Origin: Sedimentibacter sp. zth1
Lineage (GTDB): Bacteria; Bacillota; Clostridia; Tissierellales; Sedimentibacteraceae
Assembly: GCF_017352195.1 (NCBI RefSeq)
Contig: NZ_CP071445.1
Location: 620,001 to 684,000, forward strand
Direction: 5' to 3'
DNA length: 64,000 bases
The position numbers and the translations under genes are program-made. The notes beneath the pieces were generated by a model. That model searched no databases, was not told the origin of the DNA, and saw only the letters and a program-made list of their open reading frames with translations. Below are positions 8,618 to 16,174 of this stretch, piece by piece (within the stretch, counting starts at the first letter, position 1; each line of letters starts with the position of its first letter).

Positions 8618-9358
8618 TTAGTTTTGAAGTTTACTATTTTTAATATTTTTGTTAGTTTGATTAGTTTGATATGCCATTAAACCGTCATATAATTTTTTTA
8701 ATGCTTTTTTTTCTATTCTAGATACATAAGAGCGTGAAATACCTAACATTTTTGCGATTTCTCTCTGTGTCTTATGATCATTATTGTTTATTCCGTATCT
8801 ATATTCAATTATCATTCTTTCTCTATCCTGAAGTGTTTTATCCCATATTTTATTGAGTATTCCTATCTTTTGTTCCTTATCAATCTTGCCTACAACTTCT
8901 TCACATTCATACTTTATAATATCAATTAAGTATATACTGTTTCCATCTTTATCTGTTCCAAGTGGTTCATGAAGTGAAATTTCATTTCTGAGTTTTTTAT
9001 CTGAACGTAATGTCATTAATATTTCATTATCAATACATTTAGCGGCATATGTAGCGAGCCTAATTCCCTTGTTATTATCAAAGGTTGTAACCGCCTTGAT
9101 TAGCCCAATCGTACCAATAGAAATTAAATCTTCAGGATCTATATTCACAGATTTATATTTTTTAACTACATGTGCAACTAAACGTAAATTTCTTTCAACC
9201 AGTATATTTCGTGCTTCTAAGTCTCCCAATCTTGATTTTTCAATTAGCTCAAATTCTTCATCCTTCTCAAGTGGTTGAGGAAAAGAGCTTCCATTAGTTA
9301 TGTATCCAAATAGCAAAATAGTAAAAGGAAAAATAAATTGCAAAAATTGTTCAAACAA
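8618..9358 (-). CDS. sigK: Sporulation sigma factor K (pro-sigma-K), uninterrupted
   Basis: This 246-aa late mother-cell sigma factor carries a hydrophobic N-terminal pro-sequence (about residues 5-21), normally removed by regulated intramembrane proteolysis. The conserved FPQPL block follows at 26-30. Region 2 includes LRLVAHVVKKY, EDLISIGTIGL and LATYAAKCIDNEIL. The C-terminal helix-turn-helix is QREIAKMLGISRSYVSRIEKKAL. I start at TTG 9358 because GGAGG at 9371-9367 (minus strand) is 8 bases before it; GTG 9373 and 9367 overlap that site. The gene is intact, but codons 26-39 recur 8.2 kb away at 17472-17511, suggesting a past insertion in this gene. Confidence 0.95.
   Translation of the reverse strand: MFEQFLQFIFPFTILLFGYITNGSSFPQPLEKDEEFELIEKSRLGDLEARNILVERNLRLVAHVVKKYKSVNIDPEDLISIGTIGLIKAVTTFDNNKGIRLATYAAKCIDNEILMTLRSDKKLRNEISLHEPLGTDKDGNSIYLIDIIKYECEEVVGKIDKEQKIGILNKIWDKTLQDRERMIIEYRYGINNNDHKTQREIAKMLGISRSYVSRIEKKALKKLYDGLMAYQTNQTNKNIKNSKLQN
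9243..9282 (+). repeat. Direct repeat copy A inside sigK (candidate attachment site)
   Basis: These 40 bases match 17472-17511 at 35 positions, with the first 20 identical. Copy A encodes residues 26-39 of sigma-K on the minus strand. The two copies are in the same orientation and enclose the phage-remnant region, as expected for attL/attR of an element inserted in sigK. The interpretation is inference; the repeat itself is seen. Confidence 0.75.
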
Positions 9359-9575
9359 TACAAACACCTCCACGGTTACATTACTATTATATGTTTGTGA
9401 ATGAAAAACTTGTTTGTACCAATAAAAAAATTAGTTGGACGTATTAAAAAAATATTTATAAGATCACGCAGAGTAATTGTTAAAAGAGAGAATATTGGAG
9501 TAGAACGGTAAGCGATGTATAAGAATAATGGAAAATTTAAGATGATATTTAAAAGAATTAGCTAAATATTTATGC

Positions 9576-9851
9576 TTGGTACTTCTACAGGACCTCGCAT
9601 TTCACAATTCGCCACTTTCAAGACAAAGAGTATATGATATCTTAAACAAGGTAGCCGACACATTAAATATTTCAAAGATAGGGACACATACACTAAGAAA
9701 AACTTTTGGGTATCATTTCTATCAGCAAACTAAGGATGTTGCAATCCTGCAAGAGATATTTAATCATTCATCACCTAATATAACAAGAAGGTATATTGGG
9801 ATAGACCAAGATGTTATGGATAAGGCTATTGGGGAATTTAGGTATAAATAG
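9576..9851 (+). pseudogene. Tyrosine recombinase (phage integrase), C-terminal fragment 1
   Basis: About 85 codons match the C-terminal catalytic part of tyrosine integrases. Seen are HTLRKTFGYHFYQ (His and Arg of the active site), HSSPNIT (second His) and RRYIGI (Tyr nucleophile). The N-terminal two thirds, including the first catalytic Arg, are absent. The apparent ATG at 9576 lacks a convincing ribosome binding site, and the upstream stretch 9374-9575 shows no integrase reading frame. It lies directly beside sigK. A second, worse-preserved copy is at 15105-15197. Confidence 0.85.
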
Positions 9852-9926
9852 TGTGCACAAGTATTGAGAAAATATTGAATGTATAGTAAAATAATATAGA
9901 AAAATATTTTAAAAGGTGTAATGTCT

Positions 9927-10691
9927 ATGGAAAATGTAAAATTTTTATTAAAATTTGGGGGAAAAAAGTATCTAAAAGATTTGCAAGAAGGAAAACTTTA
10001 TTTTTCCAATGCTTACAATTTTAAAAACATTGAAAAAGAAAAATTATTAAAGGGTCAAGGTGATTTATTAGAGGGTGGTACTATACTAATAGCACAAGAT
10101 TTACAAATTACTAATAATGATAATAAAGAAGTGATAAATATTAATGATGTTAAAGTTAAACTTAATAATGATCCTGCAAATTTATTACCAGTTTATTGTT
10201 TGTTTGCTTGTTTTGAAAAAGATTGCTATAAATCATATGATGGAAAATATGAAATAAAATTATCTGAAGAAATTAAAGAAACAATAATTTCACATTTTCC
10301 AAAAGCTGATGCTGTTGCTATAATAAAAGAACCACAACAATTTATAGATGATGTTAATTCAAGTATTGGTTATGCTTGTAAGTCAAATTTAGTTAAGTAT
10401 TTCCATTTAAAAGGTATAATGGATTCAAAATTTGGGATTGTTAATGATTTAGATTATTATAAATATGTTACTCAAGATACGCCTCTTGTTAAAAAATATG
10501 GTAAGATAATTTTAACAATGAATGTAGATTTTATTTATAGAACTTTATTATGTAAAGATATTTTCTTTTGTAACGAACAAGAATATAGATTTATTTTACC
10601 AGAAATAAATATTAAAAAAGCAAGAAATTTTCCAATTCATTTAAATGAAAAAATTGAAATAGTTGATTTAGATTTATTTTTTCATAAATAA
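9927..10691 (+). CDS. Unknown 254-aa protein in the phage-remnant region
   Basis: I do not recognise a named family. The protein begins with KFLLKFGGKKYLKDL, a style seen in uncharacterised Firmicutes proteins whose N-termini read like FG-x-x-x-L-x-x-L. Near the end, EQEYRFILPE resembles the closing motif of DUF2971-type proteins. No signal peptide or membrane segment is present. I prefer ATG 9927 to ATG 9921, since AAAGGTG at 9913-9919 is only one or two bases before the latter. The reading frame is intact amid decayed neighbours, suggesting it is newer or selected. Placement between an integrase scrap and an HNH scrap makes a phage-defence or moron-type role possible but unproven. Confidence 0.6.
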   Translation: MENVKFLLKFGGKKYLKDLQEGKLYFSNAYNFKNIEKEKLLKGQGDLLEGGTILIAQDLQITNNDNKEVININDVKVKLNNDPANLLPVYCLFACFEKDCYKSYDGKYEIKLSEEIKETIISHFPKADAVAIIKEPQQFIDDVNSSIGYACKSNLVKYFHLKGIMDSKFGIVNDLDYYKYVTQDTPLVKKYGKIILTMNVDFIYRTLLCKDIFFCNEQEYRFILPEINIKKARNFPIHLNEKIEIVDLDLFFHK

Positions 10692-10926: not shown

Positions 10927-11420
10927 AACACCTCCTAAGATAATAGATGACGGCATAAAATGCCTTATGATTTATGGCATAAAATGGGCTTATTAAGAGT
11001 AACAGAAGGCAACAAAGTTCACCCAAAGTATGTAACAGAGTGGTTTTTAGAAATAAGTAATGAATAGGAGTATATATACCTTGGATTGGCTATGACTCAT
11101 GGAGTGTAACCTATTGGGAGGAAAAAATGCAAGGACACTTTGATAAAGAAGCGATGATTCCAATTATACAAGGTAAAAAAACTCTATCAGCTCCGATGAA
11201 ACTCTTTGGAGCAGACCTTGAAGCTAAAAAGATAATCTATAATAATAATCCAATAGATAAATGGTGTTTATCCAATACCTCATTAGAAATAGACAAAAAC
11301 GTAAACATCCAACCATGCAAAACTAACAACCAAAGAAGAAAAATAGATGGAACTGCCGCACTCTTAAATGCTTATGTAGTATTACAGGATAAGATGAATG
11401 AATATATAAATATACTTTAA
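10895..11420 (+). pseudogene. Phage terminase large subunit, C-terminal remnant with two frameshifts
   Basis: Three successive frames join into one terminase-like sequence. The first reads PEQRAYLMPETPPKIIDDG (10898 onward). A shift near 10968 leads to DLWHKMGLLRVTEGN (10969-11064). A second shift, at 11064-11067 where one base is missing from a Tyr codon, leads to IPWIGYDSWS, GKKTLSAPMK, LSNTSLEID and RKIDGTAALL to the stop at 11420. The order matches the nuclease half of phage large terminases, with GYD probably holding a nuclease Asp. Small terminase and the ATPase half are deleted. The ATG at 11127 is internal. Confidence 0.82.
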
Positions 11421-12105: not shown

Positions 12106-12388
12106 ACGACCCTATTCAAAAAAATATTCGGACCTAAAAGTCCAACACATAAAGAAGTAACAAATTTTGAGCTACTTTCCGACAACGGAGGTGGCTTTTT
12201 TTATTGGAATGGTGAGCTATATCATTCTGATATTTTAAGAGGAGCTATACGACCAAAGGCTAATGCTATTAACAAATTAACAGCTAAGCATATTAAAAGA
12301 CAATGATAAGTTTTTAGTCAATCCTGAGCCTAATATAAGGTTTATATTAGAAGAACCTAAAATGCAAGACTTATTGTTTTATATATAA
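12106..12388 (+). pseudogene. Phage portal protein, N-terminal remnant (copy 1)
   Basis: The frame through 12124-12303 reads KIFGPK, NFELLSDNGGGFFYWNGELYH and SDILRGAIRPKANAINKL, which is the start of a phage portal protein. It stops at TGA 12304; one frame change at about 12298 continues it as KFLVNPEPNIRFILEEP to 12388, where it ends. No start codon is left, although AGAAGG lies at 12094-12099 with ACG in the ATG position. The portal gene normally follows terminase, so gene order is retained. A second, more decayed copy of its first 90 bases is at 14911-15004. Confidence 0.78.
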
Positions 12389-12500: not shown

Positions 12501-12959
12501 ATGGATAATATTATTTACCATGGAAGTAATGTGATTGTTGAATATCCTGAAATACAGGTGAAGGGCTATTATAAAGATTTTGGATTTGGGTTCTATTGCA
12601 CTAGTTTAGAAAAACAAGCAAAACGCTGGGCTTTAACAAAAAGACCAAAACATATAATTAATGTATATAGCTTTGAGGTAAATGAAAATTTATCAATTTT
12701 AAAATTTGATAAAATGTGCGATGAGTGGCTTGACTTTGTAGTTAGTTGCAGGAGAGGTATTACTCATAATTATGACATTGTAGAAGGTCCAATGGCAGAT
12801 GATACAATATGGGATTATATTGAAGATTTTATAAGTGAAACTATTTCAAGGGAAGCTTTTTGGGTTTTGGTTAAGTTTAAATATCCGACACATCAAATTG
12901 TATTGTGTAATGATAAAGCGTTAAATACGATACGATTTGAAAGGAGTTATGAAATATGA
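12501..12959 (+). CDS. DUF3990 family protein, possible ADP-ribosyltransferase-like toxin
   Basis: This 152-aa protein opens with IIYHGSNVIVEYPEI and continues DFGFGFYCTSLEKQAKRWA, the characteristic DUF3990 beginning. That family has been linked by remote similarity to ADP-ribosyltransferases (H of YHGS, then the FGFYCT strand), so an NAD-dependent toxin role is plausible but inferred. A weak TATAAT-type promoter lies at about 12410-12440, with GTGAGGA before ATG 12501. The next gene overlaps by 4 bases (ATGA), implying an obligate two-gene unit. Both genes are intact in an otherwise decayed region. Confidence 0.75.
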   Translation: MDNIIYHGSNVIVEYPEIQVKGYYKDFGFGFYCTSLEKQAKRWALTKRPKHIINVYSFEVNENLSILKFDKMCDEWLDFVVSCRRGITHNYDIVEGPMADDTIWDYIEDFISETISREAFWVLVKFKYPTHQIVLCNDKALNTIRFERSYEI

Positions 12960-13429
12960 GAAATGTATTCTTTGAAGATGAAGAAATAACTGAAAATGAC
13001 TTGTTTTTTATTTGTTATATAATAGAGAAAATTTCAAGAAGATTAAAACAACATAATTATTATGTAGTAAATACACTTGGATATAATGAGTTATCTAGAA
13101 AGATTAGTGTTGCACAGGTGCTTCATTGCGAGAATCCATTGCAAGTGGTTGATGACTTTATAGATGAATATACTTTGCAAGAAGGTACTTTTGATATTAC
13201 AGATGTAGACAGAGAATTAGTTGATAATATACCAACTGAATTACAAATGGGAAAAGTTTATACAAGATTAATCTTAAGTACTTTAGAGAAAGGTGAAGAT
13301 TATGTACAAGGCATGATAAGAGTATATAACTCAAAAATATGCGAATTTTTAGATGATTATAATAGTAGTGCATATTATGAGCCTTCATATGTAATAACTC
13401 AAGCATATTATAGAGAGTCTTTTAATTAA
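12956..13429 (+). CDS. Partner protein of the DUF3990 gene, function unknown
   Basis: This 157-aa protein is coupled by an ATGA overlap to the DUF3990 gene. Notable stretches are ENDLFFICYIIEKISRR, VAQVLHCENPLQVVDDF, TLQEGTFDITDVD and YNSSAYYEP. My recollection is that similar proteins recur beside DUF3990 genes in Clostridia, which would fit an antitoxin or accessory subunit; I could not search this. No signal peptide, membrane segment or clear DNA-binding motif is visible. GGAG inside the upstream gene serves as ribosome binding site. Confidence 0.65.
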   Translation: MRNVFFEDEEITENDLFFICYIIEKISRRLKQHNYYVVNTLGYNELSRKISVAQVLHCENPLQVVDDFIDEYTLQEGTFDITDVDRELVDNIPTELQMGKVYTRLILSTLEKGEDYVQGMIRVYNSKICEFLDDYNSSAYYEPSYVITQAYYRESFN

Positions 13430-13545: not shown

Positions 13546-13869
13546 ATTGATGCAAAAGTTGCACAACCTTATGAAGTTGAACCAAAACTTGATGAATTAA
13601 TAGAGTGGTACTATAATCTAGAAAAAGTTACTTTAGAAGATTTAGCAGAATTCCATTATAGATTTGAATTAATACATCCATTTCAAGATGGTAATGGTCG
13701 TATAGGAAGGTTCTTAATGCTTAAGCAGATGCTAGAGAATGACTTGCCAGTTCAAATAGTATCTTGGGATACAGAAGATTTATATATAAACTCTTTGAGT
13801 TTATGTTCAATTGGTGATTACAGCCCATTAACTGCATACTTAAAAACACTAACAGACTTTAGAGTGTAA
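13546..13869 (+). pseudogene. Fic family protein, C-terminal fragment with intact HPFxDGNGR motif
   Basis: An uninterrupted frame of 107 codons encodes the C-terminal half of a Fic domain. EKVTLEDLAEFHYRFELIHPFQ leads into the full catalytic motif HPFQDGNGRIGR at residues about 44-55, followed by the usual helices. A stop codon (TAA 13543) lies just before, and no ATG, GTG or TTG exists in frame near the beginning, although AAAGGGG (13533-13539) is upstream. Fic proteins AMPylate targets, but without the N-terminal half (inhibitory helix, flap) and a start codon I regard it as a truncated gene. Confidence 0.78.
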
Positions 13870-13958: not shown

Positions 13959-14330
13959 ATGCCAAGACAATCACGGGTAAAAAGTTCTACTGGAATATAT
14001 CACATAATGATAAGAGGAAAAAATAAAGAGAAAATATTTATGAATTCTATATACAAAAATGAAATTTAAGAAATCTTATAAGAAATAAGAGAAGAGCTAG
14101 AATTTTTATAATTGCTTATTGTGTTATGGATAATTATATGCATACGTTTATTAAAATTGATGAAGATAAATTGGGAATTTTAATGAAAAAAATTAATATA
14201 AAGTACGCTATGCACTATAACAAAAGATATAGAAAATTATAAATGGCGTAGTGCAAGCGAGTATATAGGAAAGGACTCAAATATAGTAACAGAAAAATAT
14301 TTAAATGTTAATATGTTAAAGAGGGATTAG
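13959..14330 (+). pseudogene. Y1 (IS200-like/REP-associated) transposase remnant
   Basis: GAGGTG and ATG 13959 begin a typical tyrosine-transposase N-terminus: MPRQSRVKSSTGIYHIMIRG, then KNKEKIF. It stops at 14067. Beyond the stop, other frames give AYCVMDNYMHTFIKIDED (14110-14170; this replaces the HUH-region pattern and has lost the second His) and, near the end, IENYKWRSASEYIGKDSN to TAG 14330, typical of the family C-terminus. At least two frameshifts and an internal deletion are needed. Immediately upstream, 13876-13892 reads GGGACGGTTCTTGTTGA, which resembles end sequences I associate with such elements. Confidence 0.75.
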
Positions 14331-14910: not shown

Positions 14911-15004
14911 TATCAAAAATTATTTGACCGAAAGGTCCAACAAGCAAACAAGCAACGCATTTTGAGCTACTTTCAGATTAAATAACGGAAGTGGCTTTTT
15001 TTAT
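14911..15004 (+). pseudogene. Phage portal remnant (copy 2)
   Basis: About 94 bases align with 12113-12203. Long identical blocks are ATTTTGAGCTACTTTC and GTGGCTTTTTTTAT. Small indels destroy the frame, and the homology ends where copy 1 continues into YWNGELYH coding. It shows that portal sequence is present twice. Confidence 0.7.
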
Positions 15005-15104
15005 GCCCTAACCCAATTTGTGAAACAAAATGTTGGTAGGTCAAACGCGATAAGAGTCAAATTTGTACTATTTATTTTTTTGCTTACAGATTTGTTCTCG
15101 AAAC

Positions 15105-15197
15105 TGCGATGTTGGAATGTAGCAATATTAAAGAATATATATCGGGATAGTCAAAGATGTTATGAATAAAACTAGTGGCAAATTAAGGTATAAATAA
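15105..15197 (+). pseudogene. Integrase C-terminal remnant (copy 2)
   Basis: This stretch aligns with 9733-9851 with a gap of about 30 bases. Shared are AAACT...GATGTTG, a YIGI-type codon run mutated to CGGGATAG, AGATGTTATG and the terminal AGGTATAAATA. The frame is broken. It stands next to portal copy 2, whereas copy 1 stands next to sigK. The region 15005-15104 between them shows no other recognisable coding. Confidence 0.65.
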
Positions 15198-15271
15198 CTA
15201 TTGATAGTATTATAAGAAAATGATACTATTATATAATAAAGATTTTATATTAAAAGGCGGGTAATAAAAAT

Positions 15272-16174
15272 ATGAATTATAGTATGATTGCTGATATAAT
15301 ATGTAATTATCCAATTGGAAATTTAATTTCTTATTATAAGATTGAAAAAGGTAATACAGCAGATACTTATTTTATTGAGACTGAATTAGGTGAATGGATT
15401 TTACGGAAAATTAAAAATAGAGAACAAGGGTATACAGAATTTGGAATAGTTAATCATTTACTCAATATAGGAATTGAGTGTGTTCCTAAAATAGTAGAAT
15501 CATTAGACAATAAAGCTACTGTATGTATTCAAGGAAAATTTTATAATTTGCAAGAATATTTTAAAGGAAATGAACCAGCAATTGAAGATGTTAAGATAAT
15601 TAGTAAAGTGGCTGAATCTATAGCATTAGTGCAAAAAGGACTTGATACTTGCCATATAGCTTTTGAAAATACGGACCGTTTTGAAATTAAGTATCAATGG
15701 GAAAATGCTAAGAACATTTGGCAAGAGTTGTATACTAAAAATATTGTAGCTTTTTCTAATAAAGATGTAGAAAATATAGTGCGTAAATTATCTGATTTAT
15801 CGAGTAGTAATAAGCAGATTATTCATGGTGACTTGGGAATATGGAATATGCTTTATAAAGATGATGTTTTAAAGATAATTGATTTTGGTGAAGCACGTAT
15901 GGGAGATTATTATTTTGATATTGCTGGCGCATTAGCTTCTATTTCAGAAAAAAGCAAAAACATTCCAATTGAAATAATCTGTGATGAATTTATCGAGTCT
16001 TATGCCAAAAAAAAATTTTTACTTGATACAAATAAACTATTATCATATATACACCTTTGGTATTGGCGTGGTATTTTGGCAATTGCTTTATCTTCAAATA
16101 TAGAAAGCAATATTAAAGGAAAAGTAATTGCTGAATTTGTAAAAACGATTGATATATTTGATAATGTGTTCTAA
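15272..16174 (+). CDS. Phosphotransferase, aminoglycoside phosphotransferase/homoserine-kinase-II fold
   Basis: This 300-aa small-molecule kinase of the APH superfamily has the Brenner-type catalytic motif HGDLGIWNML (H185, D187, N192), the metal motif IDFGEAR (D204) and an N-lobe Lys in WILRKI. It is cytoplasmic. The substrate could be a sugar alcohol, homoserine, methylthioribose, choline or an antibiotic, and the sequence does not decide. The gene is intact in the decayed region and has AGGCGGG upstream. Its stop abuts the HNH scrap and M1 peptidase pseudogene that follow. Confidence 0.8.
   Translation: MNYSMIADIICNYPIGNLISYYKIEKGNTADTYFIETELGEWILRKIKNREQGYTEFGIVNHLLNIGIECVPKIVESLDNKATVCIQGKFYNLQEYFKGNEPAIEDVKIISKVAESIALVQKGLDTCHIAFENTDRFEIKYQWENAKNIWQELYTKNIVAFSNKDVENIVRKLSDLSSSNKQIIHGDLGIWNMLYKDDVLKIIDFGEARMGDYYFDIAGALASISEKSKNIPIEIICDEFIESYAKKKFLLDTNKLLSYIHLWYWRGILAIALSSNIESNIKGKVIAEFVKTIDIFDNVF

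What the first reader, a model, noticed from the sequence alone, without database searches (positions are those of the whole stretch)
9927..10691. Intact unknown gene in the position of a phage moron or defence gene
A 254-aa protein with no recognised domain is intact between an integrase scrap and an HNH-terminase fusion. Its FG-x-x-x-L start and EQEYRFILP end recall uncharacterised proteins often met near phage-defence genes.
Basis: inference. Interest (0 to 1): 0.55.

Follow-up and report, generated by a model that had tools for sequence, protein, structure and literature searches.

The report
Phage-cargo protein resembling ADP-ribosyltransferase toxins
An intact gene stranded in a decayed virus remnant makes a protein distantly related to enzymes that tag molecules with ADP-ribose, and it sits where such bacterial viruses carry extra genes, so it may help its host fight other viruses.

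Summary
The ORF is real and intact (9927-10691, 254 aa), in a degraded prophage: phage-recombinase tail, gene, HNH, terminase-large scrap. No Pfam, NCBIfam or PADLOC family recognises it. It belongs to an unnamed family; 28 rows were aligned. Profile comparison places the family beside DUF2971: N- and C-terminal parts match independently (E about 4e-5 each; 0 of 200 and 0 of 150 permuted controls), with a shared K-x6-[QE]-x-E-x-R motif. A DUF2971 model has DarT as its six best Foldseek rows, and DarT/Tpt1 lead VIA-align, so I read both families as ADP-ribosyltransferase (ART) fold. The window protein's own model gives only very weak ART matches.

Viral contig L040 shows the window's order intact (phrog_216 recombinase, gene, HNH, terminase); L041 agrees, its terminase by reading only. 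Five of eight related phages keep recombinase-terminase-portal without the gene. This is a cargo slot. Other homologues lie beside restriction systems, CBASS, AbiH, SIR2 and integrases; by my reading 10 of 22 loci are near a defence gene.

Best reading: phage-borne, DUF2971/DarT-like ART effector, probably excluding competing phages by ADP-ribosylation or NAD+ consumption. Family and location well supported; fold likely; catalysis and defence inferred.

The parts
9927..10691 (+). Intact gene of the family, 254 aa (256 aa if started at 9921)
   Evidence: ORF; RBS spacing; homologues; model pLDDT 89.2, pTM 0.86
9912..9918 (+). Ribosome-binding site AAAGGTG, 8 nt before ATG 9927
   Evidence: Read from sequence; not tested
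9936..10007 (+). Codes for b1-a1-b2 (residues 6-29) with K/R at position 11; matches the DUF2971 N-terminal region
   Evidence: Secondary structure; hhalign to DUF2971 E 4.3e-5, 0 of 200 column-permuted controls; K 24, R 4 of 28 rows
10053..10076 (+). Codes for conserved GQGDLLEG (residues 45-52)
   Evidence: D48 in 27 of 28 rows, E or D at 51 in 28 of 28
10554..10589 (+). Codes for K212-x6-E219-x-E221-x-R223, putative catalytic-glutamate motif
   Evidence: Strict pattern in 23 of 28 family rows (two of the five misses are truncated rows) and 18 of 19 DUF2971 proteins; C-terminal hhalign E 3.4e-5, 0 of 150
9576..9851 (+). C-terminal scrap of phage tyrosine recombinase
   Evidence: phrog_216 E 2.3e-29; same PHROG precedes the family gene in L040 and L041
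10702..10926 (+). HNH endonuclease, its end running into other sequence
   Evidence: phrog_119 E 8.9e-14; also phrog_4581, named terminase small subunit, E 7.5e-14
11127..11420 (+). Terminase large subunit scrap (C-terminal part)
   Evidence: phrog_9 E 5.4e-21
12106..12303 (+). Scrap that reads like the start of a portal protein (by eye only)
   Evidence: Translation; PHROGs gave no family at E 0.1, so this label is a reading, not a result

Best explanation
The gene is phage cargo (a moron) in the slot between a mid-genome phage recombinase and the HNH-terminase packaging module. Its prophage has decayed but the cargo gene is intact. It encodes a divergent ART-fold protein from a family beside DUF2971, whose nearest known-function structural relatives are DarT toxins. 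Proposed working: the N-terminal b1-a1-b2 unit (K/R11) and the strand carrying [QE]-x-E221-x-R223 form an NAD+ site with E221 as catalytic glutamate; when another phage infects, the protein ADP-ribosylates a macromolecule or hydrolyses NAD+ and stops that infection, protecting lysogen and resident phage. Shown here: gene, family, homology to DUF2971, phage slot. Likely: ART fold. Inferred: NAD+ use, target, trigger, defence role.
For: Homology: family profile vs DUF2971 E 4.3e-5, score 40.5 vs at most 17.6 in 200 permuted controls, reversed 11.3; C-terminal parts alone E 3.4e-5, score 35.4 vs at most 15.1 in 150. Motif K-x6-[QE]-x-E-x-R: strictly 23 of 28 rows (25 of 28 if x7 and a Q are allowed) and 18 of 19 DUF2971 proteins. 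Fold: DUF2971 model (pLDDT 80.4) has six DarT chains as its six best Foldseek rows (best 7yk3_C E 9.5e-4, prob 0.98); the top 13 VIA-align rows are titled DarT or tRNA 2'-phosphotransferase and the 14th is one by my knowledge (best Z 7.1, rmsd 4.4, 150 aligned). DUF2971 vs DarT profiles: score 19.9, 0 of 60 controls reach it, highest 18.5. Window model: two of the four listed entries with Z of 2 or more are ART-fold by my knowledge, 7zhm_B (Z 2.7, rmsd 4.2, 94 aligned; chain taken to be the TreTu toxin) and 7wr5_A (Z 2.2, rmsd 9.4, 128 aligned). Cargo slot. Defence and mobile contexts. Composition: 22.0% G+C, GC3 8.9%, vs window 27.9% and GC3 16.1-19.6% in seven host genes.
Against: The window model has no Foldseek match at E 0.001 in PDB or BFVD and its ART matches have Z below 3. 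Family vs DarT profile directly: no signal (45 of 60 controls score as high). The DUF2971-DarT Foldseek rows have TM-scores of only 0.31-0.40, one row alone reaches E 0.001, and Z below 8 may be a common arrangement. DUF2971 shows no profile signal to KptA (16 of 60 controls as high) or DUF3990 (20 of 60). Only one of four DarT proteins read has Q before A-E, so the [QE] is not a DarT hallmark; no equivalent of DarT R51 was identified. PADLOC has no model for the window protein; 2 of 28 rows give weak PDC-S31 matches, best E 0.0017. No member in 50,697 phage records for four queries. The control neighbourhoods also hold some defence-like hits (T1RH-like_C 2, REase_I 2).
Confidence: 0.5

Rival explanations
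1. Phage attack or counter-defence enzyme: the ART modifies a host protein, for example a defence nuclease, on behalf of the phage that carries it, as AcrIF11 does to CRISPR.
For: Carried by phages in a mid-genome slot; AcrIF11 is described as a phage- and plasmid-encoded ART (PMC12421852, title and abstract start in listing); ARTs are common in large phages (PMC9503650, section 13).
Against: By my reading several homologues lie in chromosomal or plasmid neighbourhoods with defence genes and no phage backbone, which fits defence better than attack.
Confidence: 0.2
2. Catalytically dead ART-fold protein that binds a nucleotide or phage ligand and works as sensor or regulator.
For: Very weak direct ART match of the window model; no DarT R51 equivalent identified; K/R at the b1 position where DarT has H13 (position equated by my alignment reading; DarT residues from PMC9967889, passages).
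Against: E221 kept in 25 of 26 rows with letters there, R223 in 26 of 26, Y160 in 28 of 28, K212 in 25 of 26, as expected of an active site; K or R also stands at the b1 position in 7 of 15 DUF2971 proteins by eye.
Confidence: 0.15
3. Toxin of a toxin-antitoxin or addiction module.
For: DarT relatives are TA toxins (PMC9967889, passages); a small gene of 126 codons follows the homologue in both Photobacterium plasmids, though both genes carry the same protein accessions there, so this is one unit seen twice.
Against: All-against-all BLASTP of 143 neighbours of 22 loci (E 1e-5) shows no recurrent partner, only recombinases, methyltransferases and a sigma-like pair; the next ORF in the window is the HNH gene.
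Confidence: 0.1
4. Ordinary housekeeping enzyme captured near a phage remnant.
For: Some loci show no defence or mobile gene nearby by my reading, e.g. L035.
Against: Patchy: 2 of 199 relatives and 7 of 398 phylum genomes by single-sequence search, own genome counted in both, 10 of 249 by profile; mobile contexts; no Pfam family.
Confidence: 0.03

Closest known systems
DUF2971 (Pfam PF11185)
   Same: Colinear N- and C-terminal profile matches; K-x6-[QE]-x-E-x-R spacing, conserved Y and D
   Different: No Pfam hit in 14 of 14 members scanned; the W-x2-Y and G invariant in the 12-row DUF2971 alignment have no counterpart among the conserved columns of the family; [QE] is Q in 24 of 26 rows but E in the DUF2971 matches; the window has E
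DarT / DarTG toxin-antitoxin (PF14487)
   Same: Fold of the DUF2971 relative; an A-E step in the C-terminal part of the four DarT proteins read (preceded by Q in one, M in two, C in one) against [QE]-x-E here
   Different: No direct profile signal; no macrodomain partner noticed; no DarT R51 equivalent found
CmdT of CmdTAC
   Same: ART-like effector in anti-phage defence (PMC11618068, passages)
   Different: CmdT has partners CmdA and CmdC and an H-Y-[EDQ] triad; this gene appears solitary with a K/R start; no sequence comparison made here
phrog_26561
   Same: The only library family matching the window protein below E 0.01 (residues 6-100, E 5.8e-11)
   Different: No function assigned; the match covers the N-terminal part only
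AcrIF11
   Same: Phage/plasmid ART (PMC12421852, title and abstract start in listing)
   Different: No sequence comparison made here

Membership tests
DUF2971 (PF11185) | Pfam model hit | tested here: not met
   Window protein 0 families up to E 1; 0 of 14 members up to E 0.1
DUF2971 (PF11185) | Profile-profile homology, both ends colinear | tested here: met
   E 4.3e-5 and 3.4e-5 with permuted controls
DUF2971 (PF11185) | C-terminal K-x6-[EQ]-x-E-x-R | tested here: met
   Strictly 23 of 28 family rows, window included, and 18 of 19 DUF2971
DUF2971 (PF11185) | Invariant W-x2-Y and G in mid-domain | tested here: not met
   Invariant in A9; not among conserved columns of A5
ART superfamily | ART fold (split b-sheet core) | tested here: inconclusive
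   Window model Z 2.7 and 2.2 to ART-fold entries; clearer for the DUF2971 relative, Z 7.1
ART superfamily | Glutamate near the start of a C-terminal strand | tested here: met
   E221 at first residue of strand 221-225, conserved 25 of 26; equivalence to the ART glutamate is inferred from the motif, not shown by superposition
ART superfamily | NAD+ binding and ADP-ribosyl transfer | not testable with these tools
   Needs biochemistry
DarT (PF14487) | Pfam hit | tested here: not met
   No Pfam family up to E 1 for the window protein
DarT (PF14487) | Direct profile similarity to DarT | tested here: not met
   45 of 60 permuted controls score as high; the DarT profile held only five sequences
DarT (PF14487) | Adjacent macrodomain antitoxin DarG | tested here: inconclusive
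   None noticed by reading the neighbour ORFs of 22 loci or in the 25 Pfam families shown; neighbours were not scanned singly
Phage moron / cargo gene | Extra gene between conserved phage backbone genes | tested here: met
   L038, L040, L041; backbone without the gene in 5 of 8 phage regions
Phage moron / cargo gene | Own promoter and terminator | tested here: inconclusive
   TTGAGA-17-TAAAAT at 9864-9892, but 15 promoter-like sites found against 13.9 in shuffles; no terminator-like site between gene and HNH
Phage moron / cargo gene | Composition unlike surroundings | tested here: met
   G+C 22.0% vs 27.9% for the window; GC3 8.9% vs 16.1-19.6% in seven host genes
Catalogued anti-phage system | PADLOC model hit | tested here: not met
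   0 families for the window protein; weak PDC-S31 in 2 of 28 rows

The most novel reading that the evidence does not exclude
DUF2971 and this unnamed sister family form a large, unrecognised branch of DarT-like ADP-ribosyltransferases that phages, plasmids and defence islands carry as solitary single-gene anti-phage effectors; this family has fixed K or R at the b1 position (28 of 28 rows) where DUF2971 varies between H, K and R and DarT has H, keeps the putative catalytic glutamate, and uses a recombinase-HNH-terminase slot as one of its vehicles.
Probability: 0.35. Interest if true: 0.7.

Novelty: new variant of a known kind. Interest (0 to 1): 0.5.

Why it matters
It gives a testable activity (NAD+-dependent modification) to proteins annotated as hypothetical, and links DUF2971, a term found in a single paper of the searched library (listing only), to the DarT toxins. 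It also marks a defined phage slot where further cargo can be looked for. If true, a widespread solitary gene family joins the known ADP-ribosylating anti-phage effectors.

Tried and rejected
Direct fold searches with the window model: no match at E 0.001 in PDB or BFVD. Sequence search of PDB chains: one chance-level hit for the protein (E 0.39), none for the 28-row profile. Viral-contig scans with the window protein alone and with the 3-row alignment found no relative; the 4-row alignment of another subclade found seven loci. Tblastn of four family queries against 50,697 phage records: none. Of two family queries against 72,556 plasmid records, the window protein found none and the L006 protein found 8 records, one of them of chromosome size. 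E. coli genomes with one member's DNA: none. Family vs KptA profile: no signal (48 of 60 controls as high); vs DUF3990: 2 of 60, with an 18-column alignment near the C-terminus that I do not trust. Papers: DUF2971 one paper, none with 'phage', PF11185 none; two other searches empty; one search listed 4 papers, none read. Subscription papers are mostly absent from that library, so 'not in print' cannot be claimed.

Limits of the neighbour test: the 22 test loci exclude viral contigs, plasmids, three short contigs (L046, L053, L059) and the fragment L056; they include one broken (L030) and one truncated (L036) member. The random control draw had three of 20 segments replaced by hand because they lay on or near test loci, and the control was cut to the first 143 of 164 proteins (18 segments of nine genomes). 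PADLOC at E 1e-10 lists 159 families for test and 122 for control, which does not discriminate by itself; only the first 25 rows are shown in each. Pfam AAA_21 is commoner in the control (7 vs 2). The defence and mobile counts per locus are my own unblinded reading, and the control was not read in the same way. DUF2971 set: 22 loci gave 19 proteins in my script, 12 of which were used in the profile, some cut to the domain.

Considered and rejected: a functional HNH-terminase fusion (pieces in different frames); housekeeping enzyme (patchy, mobile context).

Full report
WHAT IS THERE. The window lies in a 3.13-Mb single-contig genome (G000:C1:620001-684000). A homologue-bearing genome of the same family (G011, contig of 3,929 bases) corresponds to a Sedimentibacter MAG contig of the same length whose family gene has the same translation, so the host is probably a Sedimentibacter relative. 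It is longer than any ORF in 300 Markov copies of the region (163 aa) and very AT-rich (22.0% G+C, GC3 8.9%).

SURROUNDINGS. Upstream is the C-terminal scrap of a phage tyrosine recombinase (phrog_216). Downstream are an HNH gene and a terminase-large scrap. The next scrap, at 12106-12303, reads by eye like a portal start, but PHROGs gave nothing for it. By reading, the phage genes around are broken. Intact besides the gene is a pair at 12501-13429: DUF3990 (Pfam E 2.6e-49) plus a partner; PADLOC matches the two as candidate system PDC-M10A/B (E 2.6e-76 and 4.4e-78).

FAMILY. No Pfam, NCBIfam or PADLOC model fits (NCBIfam gave one sub-threshold flagellin hit, 15.4 bits against a cut-off of 210). 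Homologues: 2 of 199 relatives and 7 of 398 phylum genomes with the single protein (own genome counted in both), 10 of 249 relatives with an 8-row profile (own genome counted), 9 loci in genome contigs, 7 in viral contigs, 8 of 72,556 plasmid records, 0 of 50,697 phage records. A second, more distant copy lies in the own genome at G000:C1:874040-874657 beside an IS110-like transposase by my reading. In the 28-row alignment (two rows truncated, two nearly identical) K or R stands at position 11 in 28 of 28 rows, D48 in 27 of 28, Y160 in 28 of 28, and, in the 26 rows with letters there, K212 in 25, E221 in 25 and R223 in 26.

LINK TO DUF2971. A profile of the family aligned to 12 DUF2971 proteins over b1-a1-b2 with E 4.3e-5; 200 column-permuted controls reached at most 17.6 against 40.5, and the reversed profile 11.3. 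With the N-terminal parts removed, the C-terminal parts aligned independently over V-x-Y-x-D ... K-x6-[QE]-x-E-x-R with E 3.4e-5, 0 of 150 controls. Against single DUF2971 sequences the family profile scores only 12.9 to 27.7, and unrelated control proteins reach 20.6 (121 scored); 4 of the 12 DUF2971 sequences exceed that, so the evidence rests on the profiles. The strict motif occurs in 23 of 28 family rows (two misses are truncated rows, one has x7, one a Q for the E, one lacks the K) and in 18 of 19 DUF2971 proteins. The 12-row DUF2971 alignment has invariant W71, Y74 and G80 without counterpart among the family's conserved columns, and none of 14 members hits the Pfam model. I therefore call it a sister family, not a DUF2971 member.

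FOLD. The window protein's model is confident (pLDDT 89.2, pTM 0.86) but has no significant Foldseek match. VIA-align lists four entries with Z of 2 or more, two of them ART-fold by my knowledge: 7zhm_B, taken to be the TreTu toxin (Z 2.7, rmsd 4.2, 94 aligned), and OspC3 (Z 2.2, rmsd 9.4, 128 aligned). I used the second prediction on a compact DUF2971 protein (L081, pLDDT 80.4): its six best Foldseek rows are DarT chains (E 9.5e-4 to 2.6e-2, TM-scores 0.31-0.40), and the top 13 VIA-align rows are titled DarT or tRNA 2'-phosphotransferase, the 14th being one by my knowledge (best Z 7.1, rmsd 4.4, 150 aligned). The tool warns that Z under 8 can be a common arrangement; agreement of one superfamily across the top rows makes that less likely. 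DUF2971 against a five-sequence DarT profile: score 19.9, 0 of 60 controls (highest 18.5), aligned at the b1 region; against KptA and DUF3990 no signal (16 and 20 of 60 controls as high). The family itself shows no direct signal to DarT or KptA (45 and 48 of 60). The chain is thus family - DUF2971 (strong), DUF2971 - DarT (moderate), family - ART (inferred plus very weak direct match).

ACTIVE SITE. In DarT the NAD+ site uses H13, T15 and N19, and R51 and E160 are needed for the reaction (PMC9967889, passages). At the position I equate with H13, DUF2971 has H in 7, K in 4, R in 3 and Y in 1 of 15 proteins in which I could read it (by eye); this family has K or R in 28 of 28 rows, followed at +2 by G, S or T in 26 of 28. 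Of four DarT proteins read, one has Q-A-E, two M-A-E and one C-A-E in the C-terminal part, against [QE]-x-E here. Equating E221 with the DarT glutamate is my inference. No equivalent of R51 was found.

PHAGE SLOT. Viral contig L040: recombinase phrog_216 (E 5.4e-72) - family gene - HNH (phrog_144, E 7.7e-44) - a gene I read as terminase small subunit - terminase large subunit (phrog_9, E 4.2e-141). L041: phrog_216 (E 5.6e-64) - one ORF on the other strand - family gene - short ORFs - HNH - genes I read as terminase. L038: family gene - HNH - terminase small subunit (phrog_83, E 2.4e-7). The window has recombinase tail - gene - HNH - terminase scrap. In G137 (L051) the gene lies between a D12-type methyltransferase and terminase genes by my reading. 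In L039 it lies between a portal gene and a head maturation protease (phrog_12, phrog_3017), and in L044 between a portal-like gene by my reading and a phrog_760 gene. In L042 and L043 it lies near a repressor-like gene (reading). Phage records with the same recombinase number 136. Of eight regions opened, five keep recombinase - terminase large subunit - portal without the gene, three of them with an annotated NinG or homing endonuclease in between; one is compatible but unannotated; two differ. In those five the space before the next annotated gene holds nothing or a small ORF.

DEFENCE AND MOBILE CONTEXTS. For 22 loci (143 neighbour proteins within 4 kb) PADLOC names among the 25 rows shown type I and II methyltransferases, a type IIG and a type I restriction enzyme-methyltransferase, an oligonucleotide cyclase, PD-T4-1, AbiLi and PDC-M10. 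The control (143 proteins from 18 random segments of nine of the same genomes) shows mainly mad3/mad8, E1-E2, RtcR and AriA rows, plus two REase_I. Pfam: Resolvase 4, N6_Mtase 3, D12 2, Phage_integrase 2 in the test; ABC_tran 8, AAA_21 7, BPD_transp_1 3 and also T1RH-like_C 2 in the control. By my own reading of the sequences (labels recalled, not tool output for each protein) 10 of 22 loci have a defence gene nearby (window, L029 type II RM, L031 SIR2, L032 and L033 HsdM, L034 type ISP, L047 McrBC, L052 FRG, L058 CBASS, L060 AbiH) and 9 of 22 a mobile-element gene (window, L032, L033, L036, L045, L048, L050, L051, L055). BLASTP among the 143 neighbours finds no recurrent small partner. Annotated plasmids add AbiJ-NTD4 plus integrase and type I restriction plus SIR2; the other plasmid contexts are less telling.

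HOW IT PROBABLY WORKS. ART-fold effectors defend bacteria by modifying DNA (DarT; PMC9503650, passages) or mRNA (CmdT; PMC11618068, passages). A solitary ART gene carried by phages and islands fits an abortive or superinfection-exclusion effector; the trigger and target are unknown. An anti-host or anti-defence role, as in AcrIF11 (PMC12421852, title and abstract start in listing), is the main rival.

VERDICT. The new points are the sister relation to DUF2971, the DarT-like fold of DUF2971, and the conserved phage slot. Catalysis and defence are predictions.

Noticed in passing
window 12501-13429: Intact pair: DUF3990 protein and partner, matched by PADLOC as candidate system PDC-M10A/B; a DUF3990 homologue in G010 (L066) is followed by a similar-looking partner ORF by eye.
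   Followed up: partly
window 15022-15257 vs 9657-9916: A second degenerate recombinase-tail remnant lies directly upstream of a phosphotransferase-like ORF (15272-16174, label by eye), as the first lies upstream of the family gene; local alignment score 122 vs at most 79 in 200 shuffles.
   Followed up: partly
window 12120-12204 and 14915-15004: The portal-like scrap is present twice (63 nt at 78% and 21 nt at 95% identity), which suggests two remnants or a duplication bracketing the DUF3990 pair.
   Followed up: no
window 13600-13868 and 13960-14250: Scraps reading by eye like a Fic-domain protein and a transposase.
   Followed up: no
window 8618-9373 (-): Intact sigma factor gene, resembling sporulation sigma-K by eye, next to the phage remnant; the known skin-type interruption of such genes is recalled, not tested.
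   Followed up: no
G000:C1:874040-874657 (L020/L055): A distant paralogue of the family in the same genome beside an IS110-like transposase by reading.
   Followed up: partly
L030 8001-8742: The homologue with the highest best-segment identity (51%, uncultured Clostridia MAG) is in broken frames, so a pseudogene or assembly error.
   Followed up: no
L090 8016-8396 and L093 8014-8394: A small gene of 126 codons follows the homologue in both Photobacterium plasmids although the wider contexts differ; both genes carry the same accessions in the two plasmids, so a possible partner or a shared segment.
   Followed up: no
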